Shown here piece after piece: positions 1-46,129 of a DNA stretch of 64,000 nucleotides. A model generated the notes under the pieces. It saw only the letters and a program-made list of their open reading frames with translations. It searched no databases and was not told the DNA's origin. The stretch spans positions 98,701,085 through 98,765,084 of the forward strand of contig CM030366.1 in the NCBI GenBank assembly GCA_017893485.1. Direction: 5' to 3'. Source of the DNA: Hemerocallis citrina (taxonomy: Eukaryota; Streptophyta; Magnoliopsida; Asparagales; Asphodelaceae). The translations under genes and the position numbers were made by a program. How positions within the stretch are numbered: the first letter of the stretch is position 1; every line of letters starts with the position of its first letter.

Positions 1-99
1 TTTCCTTGTACTGTGGCCTTTCAAGGCGTTTGTGATGAATAAAAAATGATTTTTCCTTCCCTCCTTATTTTGTAAGAGAGATGGACGCTGTGCGTAGTG

Positions 100-1195
100 C
101 AAGCCGAGTGTCGGGCCCCGTCTTGTAAGAAAGTTGGTGGTTCAGGATCTTTGCCGAGCGCCTAGCCCATTAAGCTTGAGAAAGCTAGGGTGTATGGCTC
201 GAGGTTAATGCCGAATGTCGAGCTCTTGTGCTCTGTAAAAGAGTTAGGAAGTGGTTCGGGATCATTACCGGTGCCTATCCCATAAAGCTTGAGAAAGCTA
301 GGGTATGGCTCGAGGTTAATGCCGAATGTCGAGCTCCTGTGCTCTGTAAAAGAGTTGGGATGGGGTTCGGGATCATTACCGAGTGCCTAGCTCATAAATC
401 TTGAGAAAGCTAGGGTATGGCTCGAGGTTAATGCCGAATGTCGAGCTCTTGTGCTCTGTAAAAGAGTAGCCCATAAAACTTGAGAAAGCTAGGGTATTGC
501 TCGAGGTTAATGCTGAATGTAGAGCTCATGTGCTCTGTAAAAGAGTTAAGAAGTGGTTTAGGATCATTACTGAGCGTGTATCCCATAAAGGTTGAGAAAG
601 CTAGGGTATGGCTTGAGGTTAATGCCGAATGTCGAGCTCCTATGCTCTGTAAAGGAGTTAGGATGTGGTTCGGGATCATTACTGAGCACCTAGCCCATAA
701 AGCTTGAGAAAGCTAGGGTATGGCTTGAGGTTAATATCGAATGTCAAGCTCATGTGCTTTGTAAAAGAGTTAGGATGTGGTTCGGGATCATTACCGAGCG
801 CCTAGCCTATAAAGCTTGAGAAAGCTACGGGATGGCTCGAGTTTAATGCTGAATGTCGAGCTCTTGTGCTGTGTAAAAGAGTTAGGATGTGGTTCGGGAT
901 CATTACCGAGTGCTAGCCCATAAAGCTTGAAAAAGCTAGGGTATGGCTCGAGGTTAATGCCGAATGTCGAGCTCCTATGCTCTGTAAAAGAGTTAGGATG
1001 TGGTTCGGGATCATTACCGAGTGCCTAGCCCACAAAGCTTGAGAAAGATAGGGTATGGCTTGAGGTTAATGCCGAATGTTGAGGTACTGTGCTCTGTAAA
1101 AGATTTAGGATATGGTTCGGGATCATTACCAAGCGCCTAGCCCATAAAGCTTGAGAAAGCTAGGGTATGGCTCGAGGTCAATGCCGAAAGTAGAG
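100..1195. repeat. Tandem array, about 112-bp unit, about 10 copies
   Basis: A unit with landmarks CATAAAGCTTGAGAAAGCTA, GCTCGAGGTTAATGCCGAAT and GGTTCGGGATCATTACCGAG repeats head to tail. The CAT landmark lies at 168, 281, 393, 472, 584, 696, 808, 919, 1031 and 1143, so the period is 111-113 bp. One copy (393-471) is shortened to 79 bp by loss of the GGTTCGGGATCATTACC part. Copies are about 90 percent alike by eye; the leftmost is more diverged. The array sits between the integrase end and the missing 3' LTR of the Tat element, the 3' UTR position known in Tat/Ogre elements to seed satellites. Bases 1-99 show nothing further. Confidence 0.9.
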
Positions 1196-1339
1196 CTGGA
1201 GGCACCGAGTTTGCTTGCACAAAATTAGAACAAGAAAGGAATGAAACAGAGTTACACATTTTATTTACACAAAAAAAGTGGGGCACATGGTGCCGATTAC
1301 ATGAGTTTCTGTTACACAAGGAGTTCAGTCGTCCCCTTC

Positions 1340-14377: not shown

Positions 14378-14549
14378 ACCCGTGATGAACACAAGAATAT
14401 TCACATTTAGGAGCAATAAACTTATTATAAATGCACATTTAAAAGCTCTATATGTGATATTTAACTCTTATTTTCTCTTTTCAATAGGAAACAGCCGATA
14501 ACAGCAAACAAAGCAGATTACAGACCAATACAGACTACAGCAGAGATCA

Positions 14550-14697
14550 GTCGACTAATTCCTCAGCCAGTCGACCGGACAGAGAGTTTGCTAAGCCTCA
14601 GCATAGTCGACTTCCCCAAACACCAGTCGACTTGACCGAGAAATCGTGAAGCCACAGATGTTTCAGTACCAGTCGACTTACATCCAAGGCAGTCGAC
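14550..14697. repeat. Three pairs of AGTCGAC palindromes in U3
   Basis: GTCGAC starts at 14550 and 14570, 14606 and 14626, 14672 and 14692: each pair is exactly 20 bp apart, start to start. The wider form is CAGTCGACT, with CCAGTCGACT common in the second member. They lie 260-410 bp upstream of the TATA box. The same six are in the 3' LTR at 22824, 22844, 22880, 22900, 22946 and 22966. Confidence 0.9.
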
Positions 14698-14955
14698 TGG
14701 TATGCGGCGGAGTGAAAGGATAAGATGCAGCCGAATCTAAATCTAAATCTATCCAAACCCAGGCTACATGCGAATAATAACTTCTCCAACGAATCAAATC
14801 CAGAGACAGGGGATTGGCAAGAGCACGTGGTTAGCAGATAAGGAATAAAAGAAGAAAAGAGAAAGATATAAATCGCCGATCAAATAAGGAAAGAAATAAT
14901 AAAAAGAGAGGGACTTTCCTGAAAAAGGAGAAATCCTAATTCCTCAGCCGTGTTC

Positions 14956-14963
14956 TATAAATA
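14956..14963 (+). promoter_or_regulatory. TATA box of the Athila 5' LTR
   Basis: TATAAATA in TTCTATAAATACCAACC. It predicts initiation near 14985-14995. The matching box in the 3' LTR is at 23230-23237. Confidence 0.75.
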
Positions 14964-15096
14964 CCAACCAAGAAGCATGAATGAGAGGATCTTCTTCCAC
15001 GTTCCTAATCACCGAATCACAAGTTCCAGAGTCATCAACAAGAAGCACTTTTATCGGCATCAAGGAAGGAGATAGGAGATCAAGTATTCGAAGGCA

Positions 15097-15389
15097 GTCG
15101 ACTGTGTGACAGCCAGTCGACTTCATTGCCGGACTTCATTAGTTTATTTCTTCTTCTTCTATTCTTTATGTTGGTCATGTATTCGAACTTGTTGATTAAT
15201 AAAAGTATTATTATGCGGAACTAATTTCATAGTTGGGTAGATTGAAACCGTAGTTATGTAATGCTATATTCTTTTGAAATCTTCTACTTTACTTATTGAT
15301 TGAATCTGATTGAATTGATATAGACTTATGATAATCAACTTGGTTCTCAAAGCTCTGAGAGCAGTCGACTGAGGTGAGAGCCAGTCGAC
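15097..15389. repeat. Two pairs of AGTCGACT palindromes in the transcribed LTR part
   Basis: GTCGAC starts at 15097 and 15116 (19 bp apart) and at 15364 and 15384 (20 bp apart). In the 3' LTR the first site is mutated to GCCGAC (23371) and the other three are kept (23390, 23638, 23658). Confidence 0.9.
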
Positions 15390-15525
15390 TGACATACAGA
15401 GCTTGAGAATATCAAGTTTGCATTACCATTTATCTGAATCTGTTATATGAGCATATTGAGACGACCCGTATCTCGTGCCCGTAAATTGTAACAAGGGAAT
15501 CCTTTGGGGTTCTTGGTTCAATCAA

Positions 15526-15727
15526 CTTAAGGGATCTAGATCTGATACCAATTTCTAGAACCTTGAGTGTTTGTTCGTTTCCACTGATCTTATGTTTTCT
15601 TTAAGTGCAACTTAGTAGATACCATGCTAAAAACACTTAATGAGAGAAACGAATTAGAGTAGATACCATGCCTAATTCTTGGCTTAGGGAAACAGTACTT
15701 TAAGGAGTAGATACCATGCCCTTGAAG
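15526..15727 (+). other. Cluster of leader hairpins with a shared GATACCA loop
   Basis: Four successive inverted repeats. 15526-15567: stem CTTAAGG/CCTTGAG, inner stem TCTAGA/TCTAGA, loop with TCTGATACCA. 15601-15640: TTAAGTG/CACTTAA with inner TTAG/CTAA. 15651-15678: GAATTAG/CTAATTC around loop AGTAGATACCATGC. 15698-15727: CTTTAAGG/CCTTGAAG around the identical 14-nt loop. The stems differ while the loop is constant, the mark of an RNA structure. The cluster lies in R-U5, downstream of the TATA box and upstream of the PBS, and recurs in the 3' LTR at about 23800-24001. Confidence 0.7.
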
Positions 15728-16057
15728 GGAACAAACATGAGTAATAAGAAGAAGTTCAGAAGGTGACTTAGCATTACTGACTATTGGTGGAGATCTAAAC
15801 CCAACTACTTCCTAAATATTTGTGATTCAACACTTCTTAATTTAGTTTTAATCTTTTTATTTCTTTTAGACTTTTAAAACAACTCTTTATGATTCCTATT
15901 CTTTTTATTGATTAGTAAGTTAAAGTCTACAATCTCTGTGGGATCGACCCTTGCTATTGCTACGCTTTTCTAAACGATTCGTGCACTTGCGAGGTTTTTT
16001 TAATTTGTGTCTAGTTTTCTCTATTTATTTAGGTAACTAGATAGCACAACAAGTTTT

Positions 16058-16075
16058 TGGCGCCGCTGCCGGGGA
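16058..16075 (+). other. Primer-binding site of the Athila-type element
   Basis: TGGCGCCGCTGCCGGGGA, six bases after the LTR end. It matches the tRNA-Asp-type PBS known for Athila/Tat elements, with one difference from the common TGGCGCCGTTGCCGGGGA form. Confidence 0.85.
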
Positions 16076-16181
16076 TTGTCTAGTATTTTAACCTACAGAT
16101 CAGTAGGAAGTTTTTTTTTTTTTTTCTTTCTTTTAATTTTATTAATTAGTATTTTTCTTTTAGGATACAGGATTTTGGTGA

Positions 16182-19100
16182 ATGCACGGAAGGAGATCAC
16201 TTCGTCCAGAGCTACTACCTATTGACGCAGAAACAGAACGCACTTTGCATAGACTAGGTAAACTGTTTGCAGCGCACCAGTCGACTGTCCACACGAACCA
16301 GTCGACTGTCCAGAGACGCAGTTCACATACAGTAATGGCTGAGGAAATACCAAATCGAGTGCCAATGCAGGACAAGTTCACACCTAAGAACATCGAGCAA
16401 CCTTCCTGCATTGCGTATCAACCTAATGTCACAGGGAACATGCATCTATCTCCTCAGTTACTTAGTATGGTTCCCCACTTTAGTGGCAAACCAGATGAAG
16501 AGCCTCATCTCCATTTACAAGACTTTTTCGATCTTTGCAGGACACAAAGCGTCCAAGGGCTTACCCCTGAACAAATCAGGTTAATCTTGTTTCCTTTTTC
16601 CTTAAAACTTAACGCTAAACTATGGTATAATTCTTTGGAACCAGGATCAATAAACTCATGGGAGCAATTGGCGACAAAATTCTTAAAAGAATTCTTTCCA
16701 GCCCAAAAGACCAAACAGCTGAAAAGGGAGATTCAACTCTTCCAACAAAAGGATGGAGATTTATTTTTCGAAGCATGGAAAGATTTCAAGAACAAGCTTC
16801 TCAAGTGTCCTACACACAACATGCCTAAAGATGATCAGGTACAAGCTTTTTATGAAGGTATAAATGATACTAACAAGACAATTATGGATTCAGCTTGCAA
16901 CGGGATCTTAATGAGGAAAAGCGGTGAAGAGGCCATTGAACTATTTGAAGAACTCAGCGAGAATTCACAACAATTCTCAACAAGGAGGGGCCCTTCGAAA
17001 AAACAGGGAGTTTACGAAATCTCTAATAACAATAACATTCAATTGGAAATGGTAAACATGAATAAGAAAATTGATATGCTTGTTAATGCAATATCTATGA
17101 TGGGTGGAGTTAAAAATCAAACAAATGAAATTTGTGCAATTTGTTCTCATGTAGATCATACCACTGATACTTGTCCCATGTCTTCTTTCACAGATCAGGA
17201 GCATGCAAACTATGTTGGTCGAGGAGTATTTCCACCAAAGAACAATCCATTCTCAAATACATACAACCCAGGATGGAGGAACCATCCAAACTTCTCCTGG
17301 AGCAATAATCAGAATAATCAAGGGACTCAATTCACACAAGGACATGCACGGAACTTCCAAATGGGAAGTGGGATTGATTGGCCAGTTCAAGAACAGAAGA
17401 AGTTGGATTTTGAATCCACCGTTCTTCAATTGCTCCAACAACAACATCAAACAAGCAACCAACAAGGGCAAGCAATTCAGAAGTTGGAAACACAGATTGG
17501 CCAAATTGCTAAAGAATTAAGCGAACGAAAGGCAGGGGAACTTCCATCACAAACTATACCAAACCCTGGAGGCCAAGAACAGCTCAAGGCAGTCACAACA
17601 TTAAGAAGTGGTAAGATAATTGACAACAAAGTTGGAACACACACAGAAGAAGCAGAAACACAACCATCAAAAATTGTGGGGTCCAACAAGGTAAGTGAAA
17701 AAGAAAGAACAGTTGTGCCGCCATTTCCTCAAAGGTTAGTCAAACAAAAGAAAGATCAACATTTATTTGACATCTTTGAAACTCTCAGAAAGGTAGAAAT
17801 TAATATCCCCCTACTTGATGCTATTAAACAAATTCCGTCTTATGCTAAATTTTTGAAAGAATGTTGTACTCACAAAAGAACATTTCAGGTTAGGGAGGAT
17901 GTGGCTTTGACAGAAGAAGTGAGCGCCATCTTATTAAGAAAATTACCTCCCAAATTAAAAGACCCAGGTAGTTTTACCATTCCTTGCAGGATTGGTGAGC
18001 ACTTCTTTGAGAAAGCATTACTAGACTTGGGGGCAAGCATAAATCTTCTCCCATACACCGTCTATGAAAAGCTAGGATTGGGGGAGCTCCAACCAACATC
18101 CATCACGTTGCAGTTGGCAGATCGCAGTATCAAAAGACCTAGAGGTATTTTGGAAGATGTCCTAGTTCAGGTAAACGATTTCATCTTGCCTGCTGATTTT
18201 GTTGTGTTAGACATGGAGGAATCTTCAATGCCATCTTCTCTACCAATCATTTTAGGTAGGCCCTTTATGAGTACGGCTGATATAAAAATTTGTGTTAAAA
18301 AGGGTACTATAAGCATGAAAATAAATGGAGAGAAGGTTGAATTTAAAATGTTTGATACACTGAAATTACCACATGATGATCATGAATGCTATAATGTTGA
18401 TGTGGTGCAGGAGATTGTTGATCAAACATTTCAGGTACATAGCGTTGAACCACTACAAGCCACAATTACACAATCTCTAACTTTATCTAATGTTGAACAG
18501 GAATACGATGACTGGGGGATTGCAGAGACAATACATCACCTTGAAACTCCAGAGTCATACTCAGGTAAGTTTGCACCAGTATTTGAAACATTGGTGACTG
18601 ATGACACTTTTGTTTCTGCAGATAAGTCGACTGGTGCATTAGACAAGTCGACTGTTGGAGAGGATGAGTCGACTGCCCATACTGCTACCAGGGACCAGTC
18701 GACTGCACTGAGACCTCCACACTTAGAGCTTAAGCAGTTGCCCGACCATTTGAAGTATGCACACTTGGGCGAGAACCAGACGCTACCAGTAATAATTGCT
18801 GCAAATTTAAGTGCACAGGAAGAAGACAAGTTGCTAAGGGTATTACGAGAACACAAAAGCGCAATAGGATGGACCATAGCAGACATCAAGGGAATAAGTC
18901 CATCCAAATGCATGCATCGAATACTCCTTGAAAACAACGCAAAACCAAGCAGGGAAGCACAGAGAAGGCTTAACCCAAACATGAAGAAAGTGGTAAGAGC
19001 AGAGATTCTGAAGCTACTAGATGTTGGCATCATCTACCCTATCTCAGATAGCAAATGGGTAAGTCCTATACATGTAGTGCCTAAGAAAAGTGGAGTCACA

Positions 19101-21683
19101 GTGGTGACAAATGAAGAAAATGAACTTATCCCGACAAGAGTGACCACAGGATGGAGGGTTTGCATTGATTACAGGAAACTGAATAACGAAACCAGGAAAG
19201 ATCACTTCCCACTTCCTTTTATTGATCAAATGTTAGAAAGATTAGCAGGATATAGTCATTATTGTTTTTTAGATGGTTATAGTGGCTATAATCAAATTGC
19301 TATTGCCCCAGAAGATCAAGAAAAAACCACTTTTACATGTCCTTTTGGTACTTTTGCATACAGGAGGATGCCCTTTGGATTGTGCAACGCACCAGCTACA
19401 TTTCAAAGATGCATGATGAGTATATTTTCAGACATGGTGGAAAGGTTCATTGAGGTATTTATGGATGATTTTAGTGTTTTTGGATCTTGTTTTGATGAAT
19501 GCCTTAACCATTTGCAGCTTGTACTTAAGAGATGTGAAGAATGCAATTTAGTACTGAATTGGGAAAAGTGTCATTTCATGGTAAAACAAGGTATTGTATT
19601 GGGACATGTAGTGTCAAAAAGAGGCATAGAAGTAGACAAAGCGAAAATCGATATAATATCAAAACTACCCCCTCCCACTACAGTTAAGAGTGTTAGGAGT
19701 TTTCTTGGACATGCAGGGTTCTATAGAAGATTTATAAAAGATTTCTCAAAAATCTCCAAACCCCTTTGTGATTTATTAGCTAAGGATGTTGAGTTTGTAT
19801 GGACAGAAGAATGCACAAATGCTTTTAATACATTGAAAAATTTTCTCATTTCTGCACCTATTGTCATGGCACCAGATTGGAGCCATCCTTTCGAGCTAAT
19901 GTGTGATGCAAGTGATTATGCTTTAGGGGCTGTGTTAGGTCAAAGAATCAATAAGAAACCCCATGTTATTTACTATGCTTCTCGAACTTTAAACGATGCA
20001 CAGCTAAATTATTCTACTACTGAAAAAGAAATGTTAGCTGTTATTTTTGCTGTAGAGAAGTTTAGATCATATTTGATTGGTTCTAAAGTTATTGTTTTCA
20101 CTGACCATGCTGCTTTGAGATATTTATTTGCGAAAAAAGATGCTAAGCCTAGGTTGATCAGATGGGTGTTGTTGCTTCAAGAATTCGATCTTGAGATTAG
20201 AGATAAAAAAGGAAGCGACAATGTTGTTGCAGATCACATGTCCAGGCTACTGCAGGAGGAAGAAAGAATTGTGCCGCCACTTAATGAAAATTTCCCAGAT
20301 GAACATCTATTTGAAATAAACATATCATCGGGACAGTCGACTGGTAACAGGACCAGTCGACTGGTATCTCACTGTTTAAATTTTCCATGGTTTGCTGACA
20401 TTGTAAATTATCTCACTGCTCATGTTTTCCCTCCAGGTATGCCAAGTCAGGAACGAAAGAGACTGGTGGCTATGTGCAAGCACTACTATTGGGATGACCC
20501 TTATTTGTTCAAATTTTGGCCTGATCAAATTATAAGAAGATGTGTGGCAGAAGAAGAACAACTGAATATTCTACAACATTGCCACCAATATGCATGTGGA
20601 GGACATTTTGGACCAAAAAGAACAGAACTCAAGGTATTGCAATCTGGATTTTATTGGCCTAAGGTATTCAAAGATGCTTTCTCTTTTTGCAGGACTTGTG
20701 ACAAATGCCAAAGGACAGGAAACATCTCTTCTAGAAATCAAATGCCACTGCAAAACATCCAAGTGATCGAGCTTTTTGACGTTTGGGGAATCGACTTCAT
20801 GGGTCCCTTTCCTAACTCATTTGGTTATTTATATATACTTGTTGGTGTGGATTATGTGTCTAAATGGGTCGAGGCTGTCCCCTCAAAAACTAATGATCAC
20901 AGAATTGTTGTCAAGTTTTTGCAGGAGAACATTTTCACTAGGTTTGGTACACCACGAGCAATAATTAGTGATGGAGGGAGCCACTTCAATAACTTTCCAT
21001 TTGCTTCTTTGATGAAGAAATATGGTATCACATATAAAGTGGGCACCCCATATCATCCTCAAACTAGTGGACAGGTGGAGATCAGCAATAGAGAAATCAA
21101 GAGCATTTTGGAAAAGACAGTCAACACAAGGAGAAAGGATTGGTCGCTGCGCTTGAACGATGCATTATGGGCCTATCGAACGGCTTACAAAACACCCATC
21201 GGCATGTCACCATACCGTTTGGTTTTTGGAAAAGCTTGTCATCTACCAGTAGAGTTGGAACACAAAGCATATTGGGCCATCAAAAGGTTCAATTTTGATA
21301 TGAAACAAGCAGGTGACAAAAGAAGGTTGCAACTGAATGAGCTTGAAGAGTTGAGGCACGACGCATACGAAAATGCAAAATTGTACAAGGAAAGGACAAA
21401 GTTGTACCATGACAAACAGCTAGCAAGGAAGGAATTTTATGAAGGACAAAAGGTATTGATATACAACTCAAGATTGAGACTTTTTCCAGGCAAGCTTATG
21501 TCACAATGGTATGGGCCATACATCGTCACAAGAGTCTTTCCACATGGTGCATTGGAGGTTCATAGCCAAGAAAAGAATCAAACATTTAAGGTGAACGGGC
21601 ATAGAGCGAAGCCATACATAGAGATGAGTCTAGAACCGCAAGAGGAAGCTGTGAATCTTCAAACCATTCAATACATCGCATGA
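16182..21683 (+). CDS. Athila-type gag-pol polyprotein, 1833 aa, intact frame
   Basis: A single open frame from the ATG at 16182, 107 bp after the PBS. Gag core lies at about residues 95-225 ([32 protein letters not shown]). A CCHC finger is at C318-X2-C321-X4-H326-X4-C331. The protease active site is D615-LGAS with a later ILGRPF, the DLGAS form usual in Athila. RT has [20 protein letters not shown] (about 990) and FMDDF with D1095/D1096. RNase H starts at CDAS (D1242) and has [10 protein letters not shown] and ADHMSRL. Integrase has H1466..H, C1503 and CDKC, then D1538, D1597 and E1633 (35 residues between the last two). All catalytic residues seen are present. Pairs of AGTCGACT encode QST/KST peptides in three linkers: residues 33-42 before gag, 815-841 between protease and RT, and 1385-1393 between RNase H and integrase. 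No env or chromodomain is present. It may be mobile. Confidence 0.95.
16280..16306. repeat. Pair of AGTCGACT palindromes in the gag N-terminal linker
   Basis: GTCGAC starts at 16280 and 16301, 21 bp (7 codons) apart. Both read CAG TCG ACT (Gln-Ser-Thr). Each sits in CCAGTCGACTGTC. Confidence 0.9.
18626..18703. repeat. Quartet of AGTCGACT palindromes between protease and RT
   Basis: GTCGAC starts at 18626, 18647, 18668 and 18698: spacings 21, 21 and 30 bp, all in the same reading frame (KST, KST, EST, QST). The surrounding peptide is acidic and of low complexity, as expected of a tolerated linker. Confidence 0.9.
20336..20361. repeat. Pair of AGTCGACT palindromes between RNase H and integrase
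   Basis: GTCGAC starts at 20336 and 20356, 20 bp apart. Because 20 is not a multiple of three, the first reads Gln-Ser-Thr and the second reads Thr-Ser-Arg-Leu. The DNA word is kept while the peptide is not. Confidence 0.9.
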
Positions 21684-22656
21684 ACTCATCATGTCTAGCT
21701 GAAGACAGAAAACACAGCGCTTATTGGGAGGCAACCCAATTTTTCAGGGGAGTATTTACACTTTCCCTCTATTTTCTTTCATTTTATCTTTTATTTTCAG
21801 TCTCTCCTTACTAGATGTGACACATGCCTATTTTTAAATTTTCTTTTGAACATTGAGGACAATGTTCCATCTAAGTTTGGGGGTATTAGGGTTATTTTAT
21901 AGAGTCTTTTGAATTTTTTTTTTAGGATAAACAATTTCTTATAAAGTAAGAAGAATGATACTTATTTACTTTAGGATTGTTGAGTTTCATAGTTCCCTAC
22001 AAAGTTATATAAGTCATGCGATTATACATAATAAACAAATGTGATACCTTTTTCTGGTGATTATTCTCTTTAAATCTAGTCCTAAATTGAGTTTAAGTAA
22101 ATAGAGTGATAAAATATATATATATATTTGAATAAAGTCAATCTACTCCAATGTTTTGAGTGCTTAGTAACTAGGGGTATTCATCACCAATGTTTACCTT
22201 TACGTCAAACGGCAACTTGAAATATGAGTATGCAAAGCACTTTAAAGTTTGTGACTTGCTGAGTAACCGGGTGGATTCATCACCAATGTTTCGCATTCGC
22301 GTAAAAAGGCAAGTGACAACTTTAGAGAAGAGACTAAAAAAAAAAAAAAAAAAAAAAAACTCTAGTTTGCTACTCGGTTTGTAGTAGAGAAAAGGGGATA
22401 ATCACAGATTGAGCAGTCGCATACTATAACTACATTAATTGCATGACAAATATGATTGAGTCTGGGGATTATGACTAAACAATTGCACTAGAGAAAGTGG
22501 GTATGTTTAGTTTTACTTTATCTGAAATTGTATATATATATTGATGCCCACATAATAAGAATGCTAGGTGGTTAAGGCTATCATTATTATAAAGATACCC
22601 TTGTTCATAATTCTAGTTTGCTTGAGGACAAGCAAAAATCTAAGTTTGGGGGTATT
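21684..22656 (+). other. 3' non-coding region and polypurine tract of the Athila-type element
   Basis: No env-like frame. TTGAGGACAATGTTCC and AAGTTTGGGGGTATTAGG at about 21851-21890 look like a duplicated copy of the final TTGAGGACAAGC..AAGTTTGGGGGTATT at 22622-22656, which is the polypurine tract beside the 3' LTR. Between them GTAACTAGGGGTATTCATCA and CACCAATGTTT-type phrases occur twice (about 22168 and 22263), and there is an A tract of about 24 bases near 22337. Confidence 0.8.
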
Positions 22657-24325
22657 TGATGAACACAAGAATATTCACATTTAGGAGCAATAAACTTATT
22701 ATAAATGCACATTTAAAAGCTCTATATGTGATATTTAACTCTTATTTTCTCTTTTCAATAGGAAACAGCCGATAACAGCAAACAAAGCAGATTACAGACC
22801 AATACAGACTACAGCAGAGATCAGTCGACTAATTCCTCAGCCAGTCGACCGGACAGAGAGTTTGCTAAGCCTCAGCATAGTCGACTTCCCCAAACACCAG
22901 TCGACTTGACCGAGAAATCGTGAAGCCACAGATGTTTCAGTACCAGTCGACTTACATCCAAGGCAGTCGACTGGTATGCGGCGGAGTGAAAGGATAAGAT
23001 GCAGCCGAATCTAAATCTAAATCTATCCAAACCCAGGCTACATGCGAATAATAACTTCTCCAACGAATCAAATCCAGAGACAGGGGATTGGCAAGAGCAC
23101 GTGGTTAGCAGATAAGGAATAAAAGAAGAAAAGAGAAAGATATAAATCGCCGATCAAATAAGGAAAGAAATAATAAAAAGAGAGGGACTTTCCTGAAAAA
23201 GGAGAAACCCTAATTCCTCAGCCGTGTTCTATAAATACCAACCAAGAAGCATGAATGAGAGGATCTTCTTCCACGTTCCTAATCACCGAATCACAAGTTC
23301 CAGAGTCATCCACAAGAAGCACTTTTATCGGCATCAAGGAAGGAGATAGGTATTCAAGTATTCGAAGGCAGCCGACTGTGTGACAGCCAGTCGACTTCAT
23401 TGCCGGACTTCATTAGTTTATTTCTTCTTCTTCTATTCTTTATGTTGGTCATGTATTCGAACTTGTTGATTAATAAAAGTATTATTATGCGGAACTAATT
23501 TCATAGTTGGGTAGATTGAAACCGTAGTTATGTAATGCTATATTCTTTTGAAATCTTCTACTTTACTTATTGATTGAATCTGATTGAATTGATATAGACT
23601 TATGATAATCAACTTGGTTCTCAAAGCTCTGAGAGCAGTCGACTGAGGTGAGAGCCAGTCGACTGACATACAGAGCTTGAGAATATCAAGTTTGCATTAC
23701 CATTTATCTGAATCTGTTATATGAGCATATTGAGACGACCCGTATCTCGTGCCCGTAAATTGTAACAAGGGAATCCTTTGGGGTTCTTGGTTCAATCAAC
23801 TTAAGGGATCTAGATCTGATACCAATTTCTAGAACCTTGAGTGTTTGTTCGTTTCCACTGATCTTATATTTTCTTTAAGTGCAACTTAGTAGATACCATG
23901 CTAAAAACACTTAATGAGAGAAACGAATTAGAGTAGATACCATGCCTAATTCTTGGCTTAGGGAAACAGTACTTTAAGGAGTAGATACCATGCCCTTGAA
24001 GGGAACAAACATGAGTAATAAGAAGAAGTTCAGAAGGTGACTTAGCATTACTGACTATTGGTGGAGATCTAAACCCAACTACTTCCTAAATATTTGTGAT
24101 TCAACACTTCTTAATTTAGTTTTAATCTTTTTATTTCTTTTAGACTTTTAAAACAACTCTTTATGATTCCTATTCTTTTTATTGATTAGTAAGTTAAAGT
24201 CTACAATCTCTGTGGGATCGACCCTTGCTATTGCTACGCTTTTCTAAACGATTCGTGCACTTGCGAGGTTTTTTTAATTTGTGTCTAGTTTTATCTATTT
24301 ATTTAGGTAACTAGATAGCACAACA
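22657..24325 (+). repeat. 3' LTR of the Athila-type element
   Basis: 1669 bp, the same length and ends as the 5' LTR, about 8 substitutions by eye, followed by the ACCCG target duplication. Nine of the ten GTCGAC sites are kept. Its own TATA box (23230-23237) would drive plus-strand transcription out of the element toward the 3' end of the NPH3 gene. Confidence 0.97.
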
Positions 24326-24330
24326 ACCCG

Positions 24331-24750
24331 ACCTATCTGGGTCTGGGTCCGGGTCCTAAAATGGGACCCGTTGTATTTTCGGGTCCAGGTCCGGGTCCGG
24401 GTCCGCTCAAAAGTGACCCGACCCGGATCCGGACCCGGACCCGTTAAAAAAAACCCAAAAAATCAACATAAAATTAAATATTATATCCTCATCCCTCCCC
24501 TCCTTTCTCCTCAATTCTAAATCTTTCTCTTCCAAACTCAAAACTCATGCATTTTTCTTCTTTCTTCTAGTTTAAATCATCCACTTGCCGCCTCCGCTCG
24601 CCGCTCACACTCCCACTCCAACCCGAACGGGTAGGAATATTTTAATAGGACCCGGACCCGGTCCTCACGGGTCCGTGTCCGGGTCCAATATTTGGACCCG
24701 TAGAGGACCAGGTCCGGTTAGTGAAGGACCCGACCCGATCCGACCTGATA
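24331..24750. repeat. GGGTCC/GGACCC-rich foldback repeat
   Basis: Runs of GGGTCCGGGTCC (24338-24410, 24675-24690) alternate with the complement GGACCCGGACCC (24413-24445, 24648-24660). The segment can fold on itself, and an AT-rich core separates the arms (24446-24600). With 14325-14377 it forms the pre-insertion target of the Athila-type element. It is a low-complexity or foldback element of uncertain class. Confidence 0.6.
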
Positions 24751-24922: not shown

Positions 24923-27595
24923 TCAAGAACACATTCTGGGGAGTGATTTTGAACTACTATGGCGGGATAGCTTCTTCGTCTTTCTCATCTTTGTAATCTG
25001 AGTCTGCATCTTCATGCAGAGTCTCTCCAACTCCTTCACTCTCCATTGCATTCCTTCGAGGTTTCTTAAGAGCTTCTGATTCTCAACTGAGAGGTCAACC
25101 TTCTTCGCACAGAGAATGATTTGTTCACTGTTAGCTGTTTGTTTTACTTCGCCTGAGTGTACTCCCAGGTTGTTGACATCTTTCAAAAGGCTTTTGAGCT
25201 TCGAATGCTGAGTGATTAGAGCTAGAATAGCAGTTCTTGAAGGAAACTTTGAATTCTGCACGAGTTGCTTGCACGATTCTGATGATAGCTTCTCATGGTT
25301 TATAGCGCAACAAATCTTCATCTTTTCTTCTTCTGATAACCGAGTGTGTACCTAAAAGAAATGGTATATAACAAGAATAACGTTAAATGTTAGCAAATGT
25401 GTCCGGGTAAAAGAAATTCAATAATTATGAATTTTTTTTTAAACTTTGGATAATCTTTTTGAATTGCAATTATTAATCATATTTGGTATCCTGCCTGAAT
25501 CCATCCTATTTTATTAAATAAGACCCACAAACACGAGAGATTAATGAAAACATGAACACATAAGCTATATCGTTATTCTATCTCAAATAATCAATCCTAC
25601 TTCATCAAAATGAGATACCCACAGACACAAACTAACACGTCAAATTCATTTACAAATAGACAGAAAAACAAACTAATCGATCCGGCATACCTGAAGGTAC
25701 ATGTCAATTGCTCGATAAAGTGAATCATGTGAAACCCTTGCTACATCAGGCAGAGCAGTGACCAACTCCTGAAACTTCAAAGGTTCCAATCCTGAATCTG
25801 GTGCAACTTCTGTCAAATATTTGTCTATCAAACACCCAACCTTCTTCAATCGAGCTATCTCCACCCTACCCTCACTATCAAGAAAAAACCCGACAAATCT
25901 CAGAACAAGATCTACATCATACAGACTTTCCGGTCCTGCTGGGGATGGAACGAGCAAATTATCCAACACAACTTGATCAATCTGAGCACCTATCATGGTC
26001 TCCAATCTAATCCTACATAAACTGCTCAAATTTTGAGATGATGAAACTCGCAGAATCCCGAACAGCTTCTTGCAAGGCACTGAGCTTTGATCTAAGGAGT
26101 ATAACAAATCAACGATGGTCTCGGTAACTTTCTTCTTCCCTTCAGGAGTAGAATTGAAGAGACTAACCTTGAGATAGTAAAAGAGGAACCTACTTATAGC
26201 CGCATCATCTAATTTCTGCGTAATCATTTTCTTGATTGCCTTCTCTATAATCAGAGAATTCAAACAAGTGAGATCTTCAAACCACCAACTTCGACAGTGA
26301 TTAATTTTTGTGCTCAGAGTGCTTTTCGTATCAAATGAGAAGAGAAAGGCAGAGCTTTCGGGCGAGGAACCGGAACAATCCGAAAGCGTGGCAATTCTCC
26401 TTACTAAAGAATGCAAGAGCCTGTCCAATATCCCTGCTGAGCTTGCTATGGAAACAAAATCTTGACATTGTTTCAAAGCATTGATAACCTCCGACCACTT
26501 CCAATACGAAATGCTCTCAAGAGATTTCTCAGTTTCCTTGGTTATTTCGGCCATTTCTAAAAAATAGGCAGCTAAGTGGGCTAGGCAAGTGTTGTTTGGA
26601 GTCAACTGAATGCCACCATTGTTGTAACAGAATTTGCTTATGATCTCAAAAGCTTCAGCTCCTCCTGGTAGTTCAAGAAGGACAACTTTGAGGGTCTTTG
26701 TTGTCTCCATGACCGATAACTTCGCAAACAATTTTCGTAGTCTACCACAAAATGAAGAAAGGATTTCCTAAACAGAGATAAAGTTGTAAAATCTTAAAGT
26801 CCTCAAAAATTTTGAAACTTTTGAAACTTTTGAATTGAGTGAACAACTAAGATTAGCAGACAAGGTATGTTATAGTGATGGTCATTGAATATAGAGGTAA
26901 ATGGAATAGGAGGCGGCAAAGAGAGCAGCATTATTCCTTCTCAAATGGCAAACAGTAATAGTACAACCAAAGGGGCATTGGCCAGCATTAATTCAAGGAG
27001 AGATTTAAGAAGGATGGGTGAGCAATAAATCCTTACATGAATTGGGTTATAAACGAATAAGCTAGACAGAGAGAGAGAAGGCTATTGGGCAATGTCAACA
27101 CCAAACCAATAGATGCCATTGATGAAGCAAATTGCTATGAATAAAATAACAGAGAAATGAAGCAAACATTCTAATAAGGAAGATGTAGTGACTCCCAACT
27201 GAACCTAAAAGAAGTGAACAAAAAACAAAAATAAAGTATGAAAACAGAGGCATTGGAATTTTAACTAAGGTTGTGAAGGACAAAAAGAAGAAGAAGAAGA
27301 AGAAGAAGAGCACAAACTACATATATCTCATAAAAGACAAAAAATTGTGTGGATTATTCCAAGGACAAGGTAGAAGAAGATGCCATCCACAATTACCAAA
27401 ATAAACCCTCAAATTAAGAACCAAAAAATAGGTATAAGAAAACAAAACAAAACATGTTCTGACAAGAATAAAAAAATTGGTATGATAAATACTAATTACG
27501 TGGAAAGACAAAGTTTTAAGGATAAATTAGATGATTACCTTGTCCACAAAAAAGATCTCTTCACCATTAACGTCAACTTCAAGGTTGCAAACCAT
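24923..27595 (-). CDS. BTB/POZ-NPH3 family protein, three exons, 520 aa
   Basis: Exons on the minus strand: 27595-27539, 26767-25691 and 25351-24923. All introns are GT-AG (donors AAG|GTAATC and CAG|GTATGC, acceptors TTTAG|GAA and TTTAG|GTA), all phase 0; total 1563 nt. The protein starts MVCNLEVDVNGEEIFFVDK, the short N-terminal BTB typical of this subgroup (LPGGAEAFEIISKFCYNN at about 50-70). The NPH3 domain runs from about residue 180 (WWFEDLTCLNSLIIEKA) to about 430, with YDVDLVLRFV, LIDKYLTEVAPD and HDSLYRAIDMYLQ. The C-terminus has VHTRLSEEEK and a coiled coil (about 455-505). Length and layout resemble Arabidopsis At3g22104-like proteins. Family members are thought to be CUL3 E3 adaptors in blue-light and auxin-related signalling; the target of this one is unknown. 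No stops or frameshifts are seen, and it is the only host gene in the window. Confidence 0.92.
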
Positions 27596-38473: not shown

Positions 38474-41118
38474 TGTCATGTCCCGCTTCTCAAAAGGAAT
38501 ACGGAATATGAGTACGTGACAAAACCCAGCGAATGATTTACACCATTCATAAGCTGTAAGGATCGACTCAACAACATAACAGGAATATAAAAGAATATAA
38601 AACCACGCATGCATGAAATAAAACTCATAATCAACAGAATTATTTGAAAAACAATACATAATCCTCAAATAAATCTAAGATCTGGATCAAAAGTAAAACT
38701 TCGGGACAACAAGCCCATTACAAGTTTAAGTAGCAACATGAAATTAATAAACTCAAAACAAAAGTAAACTAAAGCATGATTTATCCCAAGCAAAGCTTAG
38801 AATGTCTGCTCACCCAATCCTGCAGGTAATTGATCTCCAAAACCTGTGTATTTAACATGTAGAAGAAATAGAGAAACAAGAGATGAATGAGCGTTAGTGC
38901 AAGCTACGGGCCGCAAATAGTACAAGCAACGGGTATATGAACAAATACAAGAAGTATGAAGTAGAGATTTGAAATCAAGAATATGCAACACATCATGGTA
39001 GGAATGCAACAAGTAAAGAGGTCTAATGAAACTAGCGGGCAAGTTCATCGAGTCAAGTAGCAGGATCATGTAACAAGTGAATAAGTAAATTTGTAACAGG
39101 TATCAAATAACAAGTGACAGGAACAGGTAATGGGAATGTGCAAGTGAACATATTATACTTAAGTCTGTTGTTAATCCTATCTAATGTAGCACTTCATGCA
39201 TCCCATTTATTTAGGACATAGTTGCTACATACAAATAAGTTGCGTTTAGACTTAGTGGTGAATTTTATAGGGTGGTGTACTCAGGCATCATACTAGCAGG
39301 TAAGCAAACGCAGGAGTCATGTAATCACGAATCTATGCACAACATATGAGACCTAGGGGTCCCCCTTCCAAGCACAGATGAGGCCTAAGGGTCCCCCTTC
39401 CAAGTACACCTTCCTATAAGGAAGAATGCAGCCAGGAATCAAATAACAGGTAACAGACACACGAACCATGTAATCATGTATTCATGCAAAAACAGATGGA
39501 ACCTACTGGCTCCCCCTGCTGAGTACATTTCCTATATTGTCCACTACTAAATCTTTCCCTAAAACCCCGACTTGTTAATTATTATTATTTCAAAATAGGC
39601 ATGAAAGTGCACAAACAGGGCAAGTAAACATGATAGAAAACAAAAAACAAGAAACAAGTTTAGGCTAGGTAGAAAACATATTCAAGTGTCAACACAATTT
39701 ATAATTAACAAGGACAACAAGAATTTTAATTCTGGATAGCAGGACGTGGCTGCACCAAAACTGGAATTTCCGTTGCTATAGGAATGCAAATCTGTATCCG
39801 TCAGAAGTTCTAGAAACTAGACTTTCTGCCGGTTCCAGTGCATATACACATGATATATAAAAATTACAGCAACTGGGTTCAAATTAACATTCTACACAGA
39901 TTTTGTGTTCAGTTAGAATTCTTAAAATTATGTTTATATGCATGAATCAGGTCTGAAAGCTCATCAAATAAATCAAGGAAAATTAAGGGTGATTCCCTAG
40001 CATGTCTAGTCTCAGAATGTTAAATTTCGTGTTATTATATTATTGATAGCATGCTCAATTTAAATTGCAAAATATGGTGACACAGTGAAATTATGAATCT
40101 AGAAATCCAGACACAGCAGCACTAAAACTGCCATAACTTACGCAATATAATTCGAAATTTGATCCCGTCAAATTTTCTGAAAACTAGGCACATGGGGATA
40201 TAATTCATATTTAGAAATTAATTCATAATTTTGTCATTAACAGGGTCGAAATCATCAGACAAAATCAGGACAACAGTATATAAAAATACTTTTTGCATAG
40301 ATTATAACATGATTAGTATTTATGATGGACTCGAATTGATGTATGGTGTAAATCAGAGTGTAACAAGTATCTAATCAGTAAGTCACGTGTATTTTCAACT
40401 CATTAACAAAGGAGACATCATTCAAGCTCAACATACAACCAAACATCTATAACATGATTTCATATAGATAAATCTCTTAGATCTACATAGTGTTTGTGTG
40501 ATAGATATAAGAATGGGATGTTTGGGAACTCTTTTTGACTATAGGATTGATAGAAGTCAATCAACGACTAGAATCAAGATCATCAATAAGTAAGAACATG
40601 AAGAACAAGTACTAGTGAAATCCACTTAAGGTATTTATGCTTATACGAGGAACAAGAAAATTCATATAAGATACTTGCCTTAATTGGATGATGAACTAGA
40701 TGATGATGTTAATTGATGATCGAGATCGGATGGATCAGATCTGGCCCGGATCTTGATGAGGATCAAGATCAAGATGATCAACGGCTAATAATCCCAGGGG
40801 CTTGATGATGATGATGATGATGATCGCAATCGATGATCGGATGGCTGAGATTCAAATGATCAAGAAGTCCCCCCCCCCAGAAGCAGATGATGCACACGTG
40901 GATGGTGGGTGGTTGCACTGGTGGCCGTTGAGGAGGCTCGACCGACCCTCTGTTTCGGAAGCGGTTCAGAGGACATGGCGGGTGGCTTCGACTGCTACTT
41001 CGGGGGACGAGGGCGGAGCGCAGGGGCTGGTCGACGAGGAGCAGGGGTGACGGGTGGAGCTGTGCACAGGACGGCGACTTGTGGCGATCAACATAGGGCT
41101 TGACGAGGGCAGGGTGGT
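38474..41118 (-). mobile_element. Chromovirus-type LTR (minus orientation), inner-edge part, split by a nested element
   Basis: The plus strand starts TGTCATGTCCCG, the same word as the LTR edge at 62810 (TTTCACGCCCC). The two share GGAATACGG-type sequence, ACGTGAC and CCCAGCGAATGATTT. The other end of this LTR is at 53516 (GGGGGTTACA) once the nested element at 41119-52855 is set aside, so its length is about 3.3 kb. A degenerate PBS-like GATACTACTAAAAACC lies on its left. It contains (GAT)n at 40804-40824 and no gene. Confidence 0.65.
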
Positions 41119-41684
41119 TGTAACATCCTGATTCTTTATTTGTAATTAAATGAAGGGATTGTCGATTTTTACGTGTTTTTGCATGTACAAATTCATGTGC
41201 ATTTTCCCCTAGAAAATTATTTATTTTGTAGCATGAACAAATATTTTAATCTTTCTCTTTTGTATTTTTAAAAGCCTAATTAAATTCTAAAGCCTAATTG
41301 TTTATTCTTAACCCCACCCTAATTATTTAATTATTTTAATTAGCCCATGGAGTTCTAAGCCCACAAATTTGAAAGCCCACTAGTTTAATTCTCTTTTAAT
41401 TAGCATGACTTGTAGTGTAGACCAATTTAATAGACAATTAATAAATTCACATGAACAAACAAATAATTAGGGGTACTAGACGGGTACGTGCATTGCACTA
41501 GCACATGCATTGTACACTTTTGACCTAGGCCGGTTTGTACTAGGTGAGTGGAAGAGTGGGTATGGTTGATTTGGAAGTGGGCCACACTCATGTGCGTGAG
41601 GGAGAAGAGTGAGGGGATCATGGGGGGAGGGGGGGGGGGGGTGGGGGGGGGGGGGGGGGTGTTACATTAACTAATTTAGTTTTT

Positions 41685-41695
41685 CTATAAATATA
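41685..41695 (+). promoter_or_regulatory. TATA box of the Tekay-type 5' LTR
   Basis: CTATAAATATACCC, 25 bp downstream of a run of G that could form a quadruplex. The 3' LTR has ATATAAATATACCC at 50138-50151. Confidence 0.7.
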
Positions 41696-42572
41696 CCCTA
41701 AGTCTACATCCCTTCACACCCCATCACTTTAATCACTTCATTGTTAAAATCAATTAAGGGAGAGAGAGGGAGCCTAATCAGTGGCCGAAAGCAATTAGGA
41801 GAAGGAGGAGGCACTGTGCATTGCGTCGGGGGTTCGAAGTTCATTCTTGGCGAGGTTTTCTAGGAGTTCGGTGTCCCCGTTGAAGGCGGGATTAATTTTA
41901 CGCTTCTAATAGGTGGGTGATTTTCTCGAACTTCTAAGTAGACATTATGCTAGGGTTTGGTTGATAAAAATTGAGAAGAAACTTTAGTTAATTTAGCCAT
42001 GTATTGTGAGAATGAGACAAATTGCTATTGGTAGGAATGTATGTTAAGAGAATGTTAATCAAATGCAAATTGTGATTGTTAGTTTAGAAATTACCATGCT
42101 ACCATGCTTTATTTGCTAGTTATGTGCTAAACTAAGAAGATATGATTGTATGTTTAGATAATTGAAATCAGAACTATGGAAAATGTGATTTGAACTATTT
42201 AATTGTGTAATGGCATGAAAAAGAAAATTATCGCTGAAATAATTGCCTAATGGTAATAAAAATGATGTAAGTGATCTAGGAAGATTTTTAAGTGCAAAGT
42301 TGTAGAGAGAATATGCTTGTTTCCCTAAAATTCGAAATTGAAGAGTAAAATGCAAGCAGAGAGTAAAATTATGTTTTTTGTATCAAAAATAAAATTTTAT
42401 TTTACTGAAATACTGTAATTGCGTAGAAAATAAAATCTGGAGTTTTTTTGCATTAAATTGGAGAAGAAGAGCACCTAAAAATACTTACTTTTATAAACAT
42501 TCGAAATAACAGAGATTCGGACTATAACCCCTAAATACCCCAACCTATATCAGGTTAGGCACTTGGACCATT

Positions 42573-42815
42573 TGGTTAATTGGTGCATTTGGGGCACTTT
42601 ACTGTAGCTTGCGGGTGGTCTTGGTCTCGGGTTCGAAACTGGGCATTGCCCTTTTGTTTTCATTTTTTTGGAAAAAAAACCGAAAACTGAGAACTATATC
42701 ATATGGAATTAAAACCATCTTCATAACACACTTGCGCTCTGGCCATTCTGGTTAGCACCATCGCCACAGTGTGCACTGTAGCGCGTGGGTGGTTTTTGGT
42801 TGTGGGTTCGAATCC
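42573..42815 (+). other. Two tRNA-like A/B-box modules in the LTR
   Basis: Module 1: TGGTTAATTGG (42573-42583) and GGTTCGAAACT (42630-42640). Module 2: TGGTTAGCACC (42749-42759) and GGTTCGAATCC (42805-42815), the latter a perfect RNA polymerase III B box. Spacing is 45-47 bp. Both recur in the 3' LTR (B boxes at 51084 and 51262). A full cloverleaf is not evident, so these are tRNA-like modules and not tRNA genes. Confidence 0.5.
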
Positions 42816-43651
42816 AGAGTTTGGCACTTTAATAAAAAAAATTTTGGTTTTTGACTTTTAAAAATATTTGATTTTGGACTCTTAAAAATCCGAAAAAATA
42901 TTATAATTCTTCTAAAAATGTATGGACCTCATGAAAAATATCTATACAATATTTGACTTAAATAAAAGTGGTTTAGAAGTAAAAATTGAGTAGAATTCCA
43001 CGAAATTGAAATTTGTATAAGTATAAAAAGTGATTTGTTCCATGAGAAAATTATACTAATTTATAAAAGATGATCTTGTATGAAGAAAAATTAAAGTGTG
43101 TTGTTTATGGACTTTTATTCATTAATTTGGGTATTACATGCATTCGAAAGATAAATGAAAAACACAAATTGTGATTTTGAAATCAAGTAAAGGAAAGAAA
43201 GAATAGCATGAGAATTAAATGGATTTTTTTTATTGAAATTAATTTTGAATGTGAAATGCATAAATTGAAATTGAACTTTATATATGAGATTGATTCATAG
43301 AAAAGAGAATGGAAATCATGTTAAATTGTGAAAAAAAAGAACTTATGAGTATGTAGACTCAATTTTTGTGATTATGAAGTGAAATTGAGAACTAGAGTGT
43401 AGCTAAGCCTCATACCGGCATTGAAAAGAAATAGTTGAAATGAGACTTGAAATGAAAAGACCAAGACTTGGGGTCATGTTACATAAATGGCTAAGACCGG
43501 TATAGTGGAAGGGCTAACTCTAGAAGATTGATTTTATTCATGATTCAAATAATTAAGGACTAGACACATAGTGAAGATGTGACGAAAGTAAGAGAAAAAC
43601 ACGAGTATGAGGGCCTCGGAGCTACGGCGTGAGAATATTTACAGGCTTTCT

Positions 43652-43796
43652 ACACGATGCATCGTGTCATGACGTGGATATGTCTCCAGGAGTCCGTACC
43701 GCAGGTGACGCTTGTGGGGTGTTTAGTGATTACGGGTGGTGTCATGTCCCATAACAGAGGCTGAATTGTCCATAGGTTCTACACGATACGTCGTGT
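43652..43796. repeat. Two ACACGATGCATCGTGT-type palindromes
   Basis: 43652-43667 is a perfect 16-bp palindrome. 43781-43796 (ACACGATACGTCGTGT) differs from a palindrome at its centre. Each is followed by CATGACGTGG and, further on, CTCCAGG, so the unit is a duplicated block of about 129 bp. The 3' LTR keeps both in altered form (about 52111 and 52238). Confidence 0.75.
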
Positions 43797-44398
43797 CATG
43801 ACGTGGGATTTCCCTCCAGGCTGTCTGGACATGAGCTCGTAACTCATAGAATATCTAGGATACTTATCGTAGTTACTGTAGTAGTTTAAGTCATGACGAG
43901 AGATTGAACCCTACAAGATGAAGAACGATTAAGGGCTTGCCCTCGGACCTATGTAGTATGGGATGCATAGAATTCGAACAAGTGCGCATTAGTGTCATAT
44001 AACATAAATAATTGCATCAAGGACTAAGTGCACATTCACACGACATCAATAGGATAGTCCCCATAATTCTGTTTTTGACAAGTTTGTGCTTTCCAAGTAA
44101 GAGAAAGTTGATGTATTATATCCTAGCGTCAGTTGAATGAACTGACGTACCCACAATTTCTATGCAAGATAAAATGATTAACAAGACAAAAGTATGCATG
44201 CTGCTTAAAGAATGATTCAAGTGTTGTACATTTTATTCAAGTAATTGTTGTAAATTGCTTCCGCTGTAAATATGTAATGTAAATGTAACTTTGATGTAAC
44301 AAAAGTTTTTAATTCCTTGTAAATTTGTACGAAGAGAAGTGTAAAAATCCTGTGGAACTTCGAATTCAGTCTTTTTTGGAATTCGGGGTGTTACAGAG

Positions 44399-44411
44399 TG
44401 GTATCAGAGCC
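44399..44411 (+). other. Primer-binding site (tRNA-iMet type) of the Tekay-type element
   Basis: TGGTATCAGAGCC, three bases after the LTR end TGTTACA. Confidence 0.92.
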
Positions 44412-46101: not shown

Positions 46102-46129
46102 AAGTGTTTTTCTGTTGTTCTATTTTTTC

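What the first reader, a model, noticed from the sequence alone, without database searches (positions are those of the whole stretch)
14550..23663. Paired AGTCGACT palindromes at two helical turns throughout an intact Athila-type element
GTCGAC occurs 18 times in one LTR plus the internal region (10 in the LTR, 8 in gag-pol) and 9 more times in the 3' LTR. 17 of the 18 are AGTCGACT. A random 8-mer would be expected about 0.13 times in 8.3 kb. No copy is alone. Start-to-start spacings inside clusters are 20, 20, 20, 19, 20, 21, 21, 21, 30 and 20 bp, mostly two DNA turns. They sit in U3, in R-U5, and in three linkers of the polyprotein: before gag, between protease and RT, and between RNase H and integrase. 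Coding pairs use 21 bp (7 codons), except the pair at 20336/20356, where the 20-bp spacing puts the second copy in another frame. The DNA word is kept and the peptide is not. The rest of the window holds only about three GTCGAC sites. Inference: these are phased binding sites for a dimeric or tetrameric protein, made by the host or the element, and they have multiplied within it.
Basis: partly seen in the sequence, partly recalled or inferred. Interest (0 to 1): 0.93.

Follow-up and report, generated by a model that had tools for sequence, protein, structure and literature searches.

The report
Shared paired palindromes in daylily retrotransposons
In a plant genome that is probably daylily, several unrelated kinds of jumping genes carry the same short symmetric DNA word in pairs two helical turns apart, as if one unidentified DNA-binding protein recognised them all.

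Summary
The window element (14383-24325, LTRs 99.5% alike, TSD ACCCG, one 1833-aa gag-pol ORF) holds all 25 AGTCGACT of the window. The assembly (3.775 Gb, probably Hemerocallis citrina) holds 661,471 exact copies against 35,539 for the reversed control. 204,136 pairs start 20-22 bp apart (control 4), 88% of all pairs at 13-43 bp. Pairs occur in three lineages: Athila-type Ty3, Sirevirus-like Ty1/copia, Tekay-type chromovirus. In four aligned Athila U3 copies octamers are 97% identical, in-pair spacers 55%. The coding clusters lie in insertions or unalignable linkers; no listed homologue (0 of 120) could encode a pair. Outer flanks often read CNGNNC, inner rarely, so the unit is a dyad about 40 bp long. 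Covariation tests do not support an RNA hairpin. Best reading: arrays of composite sites for one sequence-specific DNA-binding protein (host activator or element-made anti-silencing factor), acquired convergently. Closest known: palindromic 'RM boxes' of Sireviruses and VANC-target arrays of VANDAL transposons; cross-superfamily sharing, two-turn pairing and gag-pol linker insertions go beyond both. No binding protein was identified.

The parts
14378..14382 (.). target-site duplication ACCCG, left copy (right copy 24326-24330)
   Evidence: sequence
14383..16051 (+). 5' LTR, 1669 bp, TG...CA; 8 mismatches to the 3' LTR over 1670 compared bases
14549..14576 (.). U3 pair 1: AGTCGACT + AGTCGACC, starts 20 bp apart
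14605..14632 (.). U3 pair 2, 20 bp
14671..14698 (.). U3 pair 3, 20 bp
14956..14963 (+). TATAAATA box; U3 pairs lie 258-407 bp upstream, the other LTR pairs downstream
15096..15122 (.). R-U5 pair, 19 bp
15363..15390 (.). U5 pair, 20 bp
16058..16075 (+). primer-binding-site-like TGGCGCCGCTGCCGGGGA
   Evidence: sequence; assignment recalled
16182..21683 (+). single gag-pol ORF, 1833 aa: gag, protease (just below cut-off), RT, RNase H, integrase; the only other + strand ORF of 100 aa or more in the element is one of 105 aa inside gag
16279..16307 (.). coding pair in the N-terminal linker before the gag domain, 21 bp, peptide [10 protein letters not shown]; stretch missing from P0001 and unrelated in the other homologues aligned
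18625..18704 (.). coding cluster of four octamers between protease and RT (21, 21, 30 bp), within a 27-residue insertion relative to P0001 and P0002
20335..20362 (.). coding pair between RNase H and integrase, 20 bp, two reading frames (QST / SRL), in an 18-residue insertion relative to P0001 and P0002
22640..22656 (+). polypurine-tract-like CTAAGTTTGGGGGTATT next to the 3' LTR
   Evidence: sequence
22657..24325 (+). 3' LTR with the same pairs; one octamer changed to AGCCGACT at 23370
22823..22972 (.). three U3 pairs of the 3' LTR
23370..23396 (.). R-U5 pair of the 3' LTR, AGCCGACT + AGTCGACT, 19 bp
23637..23664 (.). U5 pair of the 3' LTR, 20 bp

Best explanation
Each pair is one composite, dyad-symmetric binding site, roughly CNGNNC-AGTCGACT-N12..14-AGTCGACT-GNNCNG, for a sequence-specific DNA-binding protein that acts as a dimer of dimers on one face of the helix. 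Arrays of such sites upstream of the TATA box, in R-U5 and in coding linkers recruit it along the whole element, and binding favours expression of the element, either as an ordinary activator or by keeping silencing marks off. Several unrelated LTR-retrotransposon lineages of this genome gained and kept the same site because the same trans-acting protein serves them. SHOWN: word, pairing, spacing, flank asymmetry, conservation against diverged spacers, place in coding linkers, presence in three lineages, absence at peptide level in the listed homologues. INFERRED: that a protein binds, that it is one protein, that the gains were independent, and that binding helps the element. Whether it is a host factor (slightly favoured) or element-encoded is open.
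For: Genome-wide 204,136 exact pairs at 20-22 bp against 4 reversed-control pairs, out of 232,380 at 13-43 bp against 91. 124 of 130 exact octamers in the window and L001-L019 have a partner with at most one mismatch at 17-24 bp; background 1.7%. U3 of four Athila LTR copies: octamers 96.9% identical, in-pair spacers 54.9%, rest 72.8%, 0 of 5000 random block sets as conserved; spacing varies only 19-22 while indels occur in the spacers. PR-RT linker: all four octamers kept between window and L004 while spacers change. The coding clusters lie in stretches that the six homologues aligned lack or do not share; 0 of 120 listed homologues has a peptide that could encode a pair at 19-22 bp. Lineages: Ty1/copia, Athila-type Ty3 (window, L004, L005), Tekay-type Ty3 (L032, 9 exact sites in each LTR part held, none internal). 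Outer flank CNGNNC in 130,062 of 408,272 pair flanks; in the first 100 listed pairs 70 of 200 outer (rows) against 3 of 200 inner. Clusters of 3-4 octamers in 21-bp steps suit a helical face.
Against: No binding protein, methylation, expression or small-RNA data were available. The outer-flank preference seen in 37 distinct pairs (C at -6, P 3e-8) was not significant in 8 held-out distinct pairs (6/16 against 3/16); its further support is the genome-wide count, in which large families may dominate. 4 of 130 octamers had no partner even at two mismatches, one of them cut by a locus end. Spacings of 20, 21 and 22 mean that tight phasing is not required. The Tekay-type element of the window and 12 of 14 blind 10-kb loci have no exact octamer, so many repeats amplified without it.
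Confidence: 0.72

Rival explanations
1. Element-encoded anti-silencing, VANC-like (one form of the best explanation): one retrotransposon family makes a protein that binds the pairs and strips silencing marks from its own and from pirating families.
For: Closest functional precedent: VANC21/VANC6 bind short motifs that multiply by tandem repetition, and VANC6 motifs also occur in the unrelated AT9TSD1 (PMC5735166, passages read). Here sites run through whole elements and across families. The Copia copy in L002/L003 has an open 362-aa ORF between pol and 3' LTR (L020:113-1198, PF20167 'putative plant transposon protein', 56.6 bits against cut-off 45), directly downstream of a pair array (L002:8931-9103).
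Against: The window element encodes only gag-pol. I know of no evidence that PF20167 binds DNA; its model failed (pLDDT 36.6). Another Copia copy (L006/L021) has the pairs without an intact ORF of this kind. Whether PF20167 loci in general carry pairs could not be tested: all 7 requests met a busy server.
Confidence: 0.3
2. Host transcription factor hijack (the other form of the best explanation): a daylily factor binds the pair and drives expression in the tissue where the elements replicate.
For: Arrays lie upstream of TATA in the window LTR, as do Sirevirus RM boxes, which mainly matched stress-factor sites in the PLACE database (PMC2829016, section 9 read). Sharing between unrelated lineages is simplest if the protein is the host's.
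Against: It does not by itself explain arrays downstream of the TATA box and inside coding linkers. No named factor was found: literature searches for AGTCGACT (20 of 711 papers listed) and CAGTCGACTG (20 of 29 listed) showed only unrelated titles.
Confidence: 0.38
3. RNA-level hairpins: a repeated palindrome is also an inverted repeat, so each pair could fold into a 7-13-bp stem with a loop of about 6-14 nt for dimerisation, packaging or small-RNA production.
For: Eight window segments with pairs fold with z from -1.1 to -6.2. Maize Sirevirus palindrome clusters with predicted structure attract small RNAs (described in PMC10760457, passages read).
Against: In 45 distinct pairs no covariation between partners, inner or outer, at the positions tested (permutation P 0.35-0.95); in the earlier set of 52 pairs the lowest value was P 0.08, outer position 4. 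Of 23 distinct pairs with a variant octamer none restores eight Watson-Crick pairs, though 4 keep eight pairs if G-U is allowed. Arrays of three or four octamers at 21 bp have no single natural partner.
Confidence: 0.1
4. Neutral or mechanistic spread: satellite-like duplication or a tiny mobile hairpin that copies itself into elements.
For: Local duplications exist: 21-bp steps in PR-RT, 29-bp duplication in L005 R-U5.
Against: In-pair spacers differ between pairs (79 distinct among the 100 listed) and octamers stay 97% identical where spacers fall to 55%; a neutral copy would decay alike. Starts 20-22 bp apart in 88% of close pairs.
Confidence: 0.05

Closest known systems
Repeated-motif (RM) boxes of Sirevirus Ty1/copia retrotransposons (Bousios et al. 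2010, PMC2829016; passages and sections 6, 7, 9, 19 read)
   Same: Short palindromes in high copy (8-32 per element), in LTRs upstream of TATA and upstream of an env-like gene, conserved while flanks diverge; the grape RM CGGTCGACCG even has GTCGAC at its centre. The Copia family here resembles Sireviruses (PPT AGGGGGAG two bases before the LTR, LTR about 1.5 kb, array before a 3' ORF).
   Different: RM boxes are reported as a Sirevirus-only feature, differ in sequence from element to element, and lie in LTRs and the linker, with a few extra copies at the start of the ENV gene in Osr10 and HOPIE. Here one identical word serves Copia, Athila-type and Tekay-type elements, sits in gag-pol linkers too, and is organised as pairs two turns apart.
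VANC / VANDAL anti-silencing target motifs in Arabidopsis (Hosaka et al. 2017, PMC5735166, passages read; Sasaki et al. 2023, PMC10398659, abstract read)
   Same: Short words that accumulate in transposons, partly by tandem duplication, can be shared by an unrelated transposon, and direct a trans-acting protein.
   Different: VANDALs are DNA transposons (recalled); the motifs are non-palindromic and reported in non-coding regions; a known element-encoded protein. None is identified here.
Athila/Tat-type Ty3 retrotransposons (lineage name recalled)
   Same: Gene order gag-PR-RT-RNase H-integrase in one ORF, large LTRs.
   Different: No env-like ORF; linker insertions that carry the octamers.

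Membership tests
Sirevirus RM boxes | palindromic repeated motif with dyad symmetry, at least 8 copies per element | tested here: met
   18 GTCGAC in 5' LTR plus internal region, 9 in the 3' LTR; 25 of 27 are AGTCGACT
Sirevirus RM boxes | clustered in the LTR upstream of the TATA box | tested here: met
   three pairs 258-407 bp upstream of TATAAATA; two more LTR pairs lie downstream
Sirevirus RM boxes | CGG-CCG core signature (12 of the 13 published RMs) | tested here: not met
   octamer lacks it; CNG/CNG flanks on the outer sides only, in about a third of flanks
Sirevirus RM boxes | confined to Sireviruses and to LTR, linker and ENV start | tested here: not met
   present in Ty3 elements and inside gag-pol
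VANC-type anti-silencing system | element encodes the binding protein | tested here: not met
   for the window element: only gag-pol; a candidate ORF exists in one Copia copy
VANC-type anti-silencing system | transposons with the motif lose methylation when the protein is expressed | not testable with these tools
   no methylation data
Athila-type Ty3 element | gag, PR, RT, RNase H, IN in Ty3 order | tested here: met
   Pfam order (protease 22.9 bits, just below cut-off 24.3)
Athila-type Ty3 element | placement in the Athila clade by RT phylogeny | not tested
   no named reference set at hand; lineage names Athila and Tekay are recalled, not from a call
Athila-type Ty3 element | env-like ORF after pol (present in some members; recalled) | tested here: not met
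   no + strand ORF of 100 aa or more after 21683 within the element
Sirevirus (Copia family in L002/L003) | PPT AGGGGGAG starting exactly 10 bp before the 3' LTR | tested here: met
   L003:884-891, LTR from 894; followed by AA/TG instead of the usual AT/TG
Sirevirus (Copia family in L002/L003) | several identical upstream PPTs | tested here: inconclusive
   only the 0.4 kb between ORF3 and the 3' LTR was looked at: one near-copy AGGGGGAA

The most novel reading that the evidence does not exclude
A guild of unrelated retrotransposons (Ty1/copia, Athila, chromovirus) in one plant genome has converged on a single composite operator, two palindromes two turns apart with outer CNGNNC arms, because all depend on one trans-acting protein, possibly an anti-silencing factor made by one family and pirated by the rest; the elements even wrote the operator into their protein linkers so that the factor covers the whole element.
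Probability: 0.33. Interest if true: 0.92.

Novelty: new variant of a known kind. Interest (0 to 1): 0.8.

Why it matters
If true, it is a case of unrelated transposable elements sharing one regulatory code, written some 200,000 times in a genome. It would give a direct handle on the open question whether large plant genomes grew through elements that share, or steal, one activator or anti-silencing factor. The predictions are sharp: a 45-bp probe, a spacing rule and an octamer. Because the code also sits in coding linkers, it would show selection on DNA-level binding inside a reading frame.

Tried and rejected
AlphaFold of the Copia 3' ORF family (A5, 8 sequences) failed (mean pLDDT 36.6), so no fold search was run. 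A scan of IMG/VR for AGTCGACTN{11,14}AGTCGACT gave 10 contig stretches; none was examined further. Literature: AGTCGACT (20 of 711 papers listed) and CAGTCGACTG (20 of 29 listed) showed only unrelated titles; 'GTCGAC palindrome' with LTR/Athila terms (15 of 248 listed), Hemerocallis with retrotransposon/motif/palindrome (10 of 875 listed) and Copia/Gypsy/convergent/anti-silencing terms (12 of 35 listed) showed no title or abstract start that reports this motif; the only relevant rows were the RM-box paper and the VANC papers. A half-turn offset between successive pairs was tested on 14 distinct gaps of 57 and is not convincing (periods near 13 bp fit better than 10.5). The genome-wide count of inner CNGNNC did not complete; the inner figure rests on 100 listed pairs. 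An alignment call failed on a wrong frame and a paper look-up on a term that was too short.

Sampling limits: L001-L005 and L032-L055 were chosen because they lie at listed octamers; L020 and L021 extend earlier loci; only L006-L019 are blind picks, of which 2 of 14 carry exact octamers. Nearly all pair-bearing loci are from the first megabase of one contig (exceptions: the window, L006/L021, L016). De-duplication left 45 of 156 pairs, 52 of 118 (other rule) and 38 of 111. In one search two of the 52 kept pairs (L002:1425, L015:341) consist of two one-mismatch sites and may be chance.

Full report
CHECK OF THE OBSERVATION. The window holds 30 GTCGAC against 6.1 expected and 25 AGTCGACT against 0.45. 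All 25 octamers lie in one LTR retrotransposon, 14383-24325, with 1669-bp LTRs (8 mismatches over 1670 compared bases), a 5-bp target duplication ACCCG and one 1833-aa gag-pol ORF. The other 54,047 bases hold no exact octamer.

SCALE. The assembly that holds the window has 3.775 Gb in 701 contigs, eleven of them 217-472 Mb long. It contains 661,471 AGTCGACT against 35,539 for the reversed palindrome TCAGCTGA; 232,380 exact pairs with gaps of 5-35 bases against 91 in the control; and 204,136 with gaps of 12-14, i.e. starts 20-22 bp apart, against 4. So 88% of close pairs use 3 of 31 possible gaps. In the window and L001-L019, 124 of 130 exact octamers have a partner with at most one mismatch at 17-24 bp (background 1.7%); two of the other six have a partner with two mismatches, one is cut by the locus end.

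HOST. The host gene at 25673-26731 (NPH3 family) is nearest, among named proteins, to one of Asparagus officinalis (66%). Size and 11 chromosomes match Hemerocallis citrina, published at 3.77 Gb and 11 pseudochromosomes (PMC8027641, passages). This identification is an inference.

WHICH ELEMENTS. Pairs are present in Athila-type copies (window, L004, L005), in Ty1/copia copies (L002/L003, L006/L021, L035; Pfam RVT_2 and Retrotran_gag_2) and in Tekay-type Ty3 elements (L032: 9 exact octamers in each of its two LTR parts and none between, 99.3% alike over 761 bp; a longer-LTR type in L001 and L005). Of the 20 contexts, chosen for their octamers, the best match was Athila-type for 12, Tekay-type for 3 (one weak), Copia for 2, ambiguous for 1 and nothing for 2 (L038, L050). 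A further, unclassified repeat (L016:1640-2637, L034) also has the word. The Tekay-type element of the window (41117-52855), about 71% identical to L032 in its internal region, has none. Lineage names are recalled, not from a reference tree.

CONSTRAINT. In four aligned Athila U3 copies octamers are 96.9% identical, in-pair spacers 54.9%, the rest 72.8%; none of 5000 random block sets reaches the octamer value, and the spacing stays 19-22 although spacers gain and lose bases. These four were chosen as homologous LTR pieces that carry pairs. In the PR-RT linker the window and L004 keep all four octamers while the residues between change. Before gag the pair is kept too.

CODING PLACES. Against P0001 and P0002 (78 and 77% identical in the alignment), the PR-RT cluster is in a 27-residue and the RH-IN pair in an 18-residue insertion; the N-terminal pair is in a stretch that is missing from P0001 and unrelated in the other five aligned. 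Of the 120 homologues listed (418 passed the threshold), none has a peptide that could encode two octamers 19-22 bp apart; the window protein has four such readings. DNA of those homologues was not available, and sources of the two nearest are unnamed.

SYMMETRY. C precedes and G follows most octamers. In 37 distinct pairs the outer side also prefers C at -6 (45/74 against 12/74 inside) and G at -4 (38/74 against 19/74); in 8 held-out pairs neither is significant. Genome-wide, 130,062 of 408,272 outer flanks read CNGNNC. In the first 100 listed pairs it is 70 of 200 outer (rows) against 3 of 200 inner. I conclude that the pair, not the single octamer, is the symmetric unit.

HAIRPIN TEST. A repeated palindrome is necessarily an inverted repeat, and the pairs do fold. 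But partners do not covary: complementarity of partners is not above that of permuted partners at the inner and outer positions tested (P 0.35-0.95, 45 pairs; lowest P 0.08 in the earlier 52 pairs), and none of 23 distinct variant pairs is compensated to eight Watson-Crick pairs, though 4 keep eight pairs with G-U. Arrays of three or four octamers in 21-bp steps also fit a helix face better than stems.

KNOWN RELATIVES. Sirevirus RM boxes (PMC2829016, passages and sections 6, 7, 9, 19) are the nearest known thing: high-copy palindromes in LTRs and before the env-like gene, reported as Sirevirus-specific, with a few copies at the start of ENV in two elements. The Copia family here has a Sirevirus-like PPT and a pair array just before a 362-aa 3' ORF. 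The second relative is the VANC system (PMC5735166, passages), where VANC6 motifs also occur in the unrelated AT9TSD1. Membership in either is not claimed: defining features fail (see table).

VERDICT. Convergent arrays of a composite operator for a DNA-binding protein, confidence 0.72 for the binding-site reading; host factor and element factor remain about equally likely. The protein is the missing piece.

Noticed in passing
L020:113-1198 (also L002:9413-10000 plus L003:1-498): Open 362-aa ORF after Copia pol, family PF20167 'putative plant transposon protein' (56.6 bits), with seven homologues (39-51% identical) on ENA contigs; function unknown.
   Followed up: partly
window 41117-52855: Tekay-type Ty3 element with about 3.3-kb LTRs (93% alike) that has no octamer pairs although related elements (L001, L005, L032) do.
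   Followed up: partly
window 21871-21887 and 22640-22656: The polypurine-tract-like 17-mer CTAAGTTTGGGGGTATT occurs twice, the first copy about 770 bp before the 3' LTR, reminiscent of the multiple PPTs of Sireviruses.
   Followed up: no
window 1-1200: Tandem repeat with a unit of about 112 bp (self-matches).
   Followed up: no
window 24330-24460: The element sits in a repeat rich in GGGTCCGGGTCC-like words; a similar repeat is in L017.
   Followed up: no
window 58001-60000: Strong GC skew of -0.52 over 2 kb.
   Followed up: no
L005:4354-4410: A 29-bp duplication made extra octamers in the R-U5 region, showing how pairs can multiply locally.
   Followed up: partly
L016:2305-2400 and L034:860-1085: An unclassified repeat also carries the octamer, partly at 32-44 bp spacing.
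   Followed up: no
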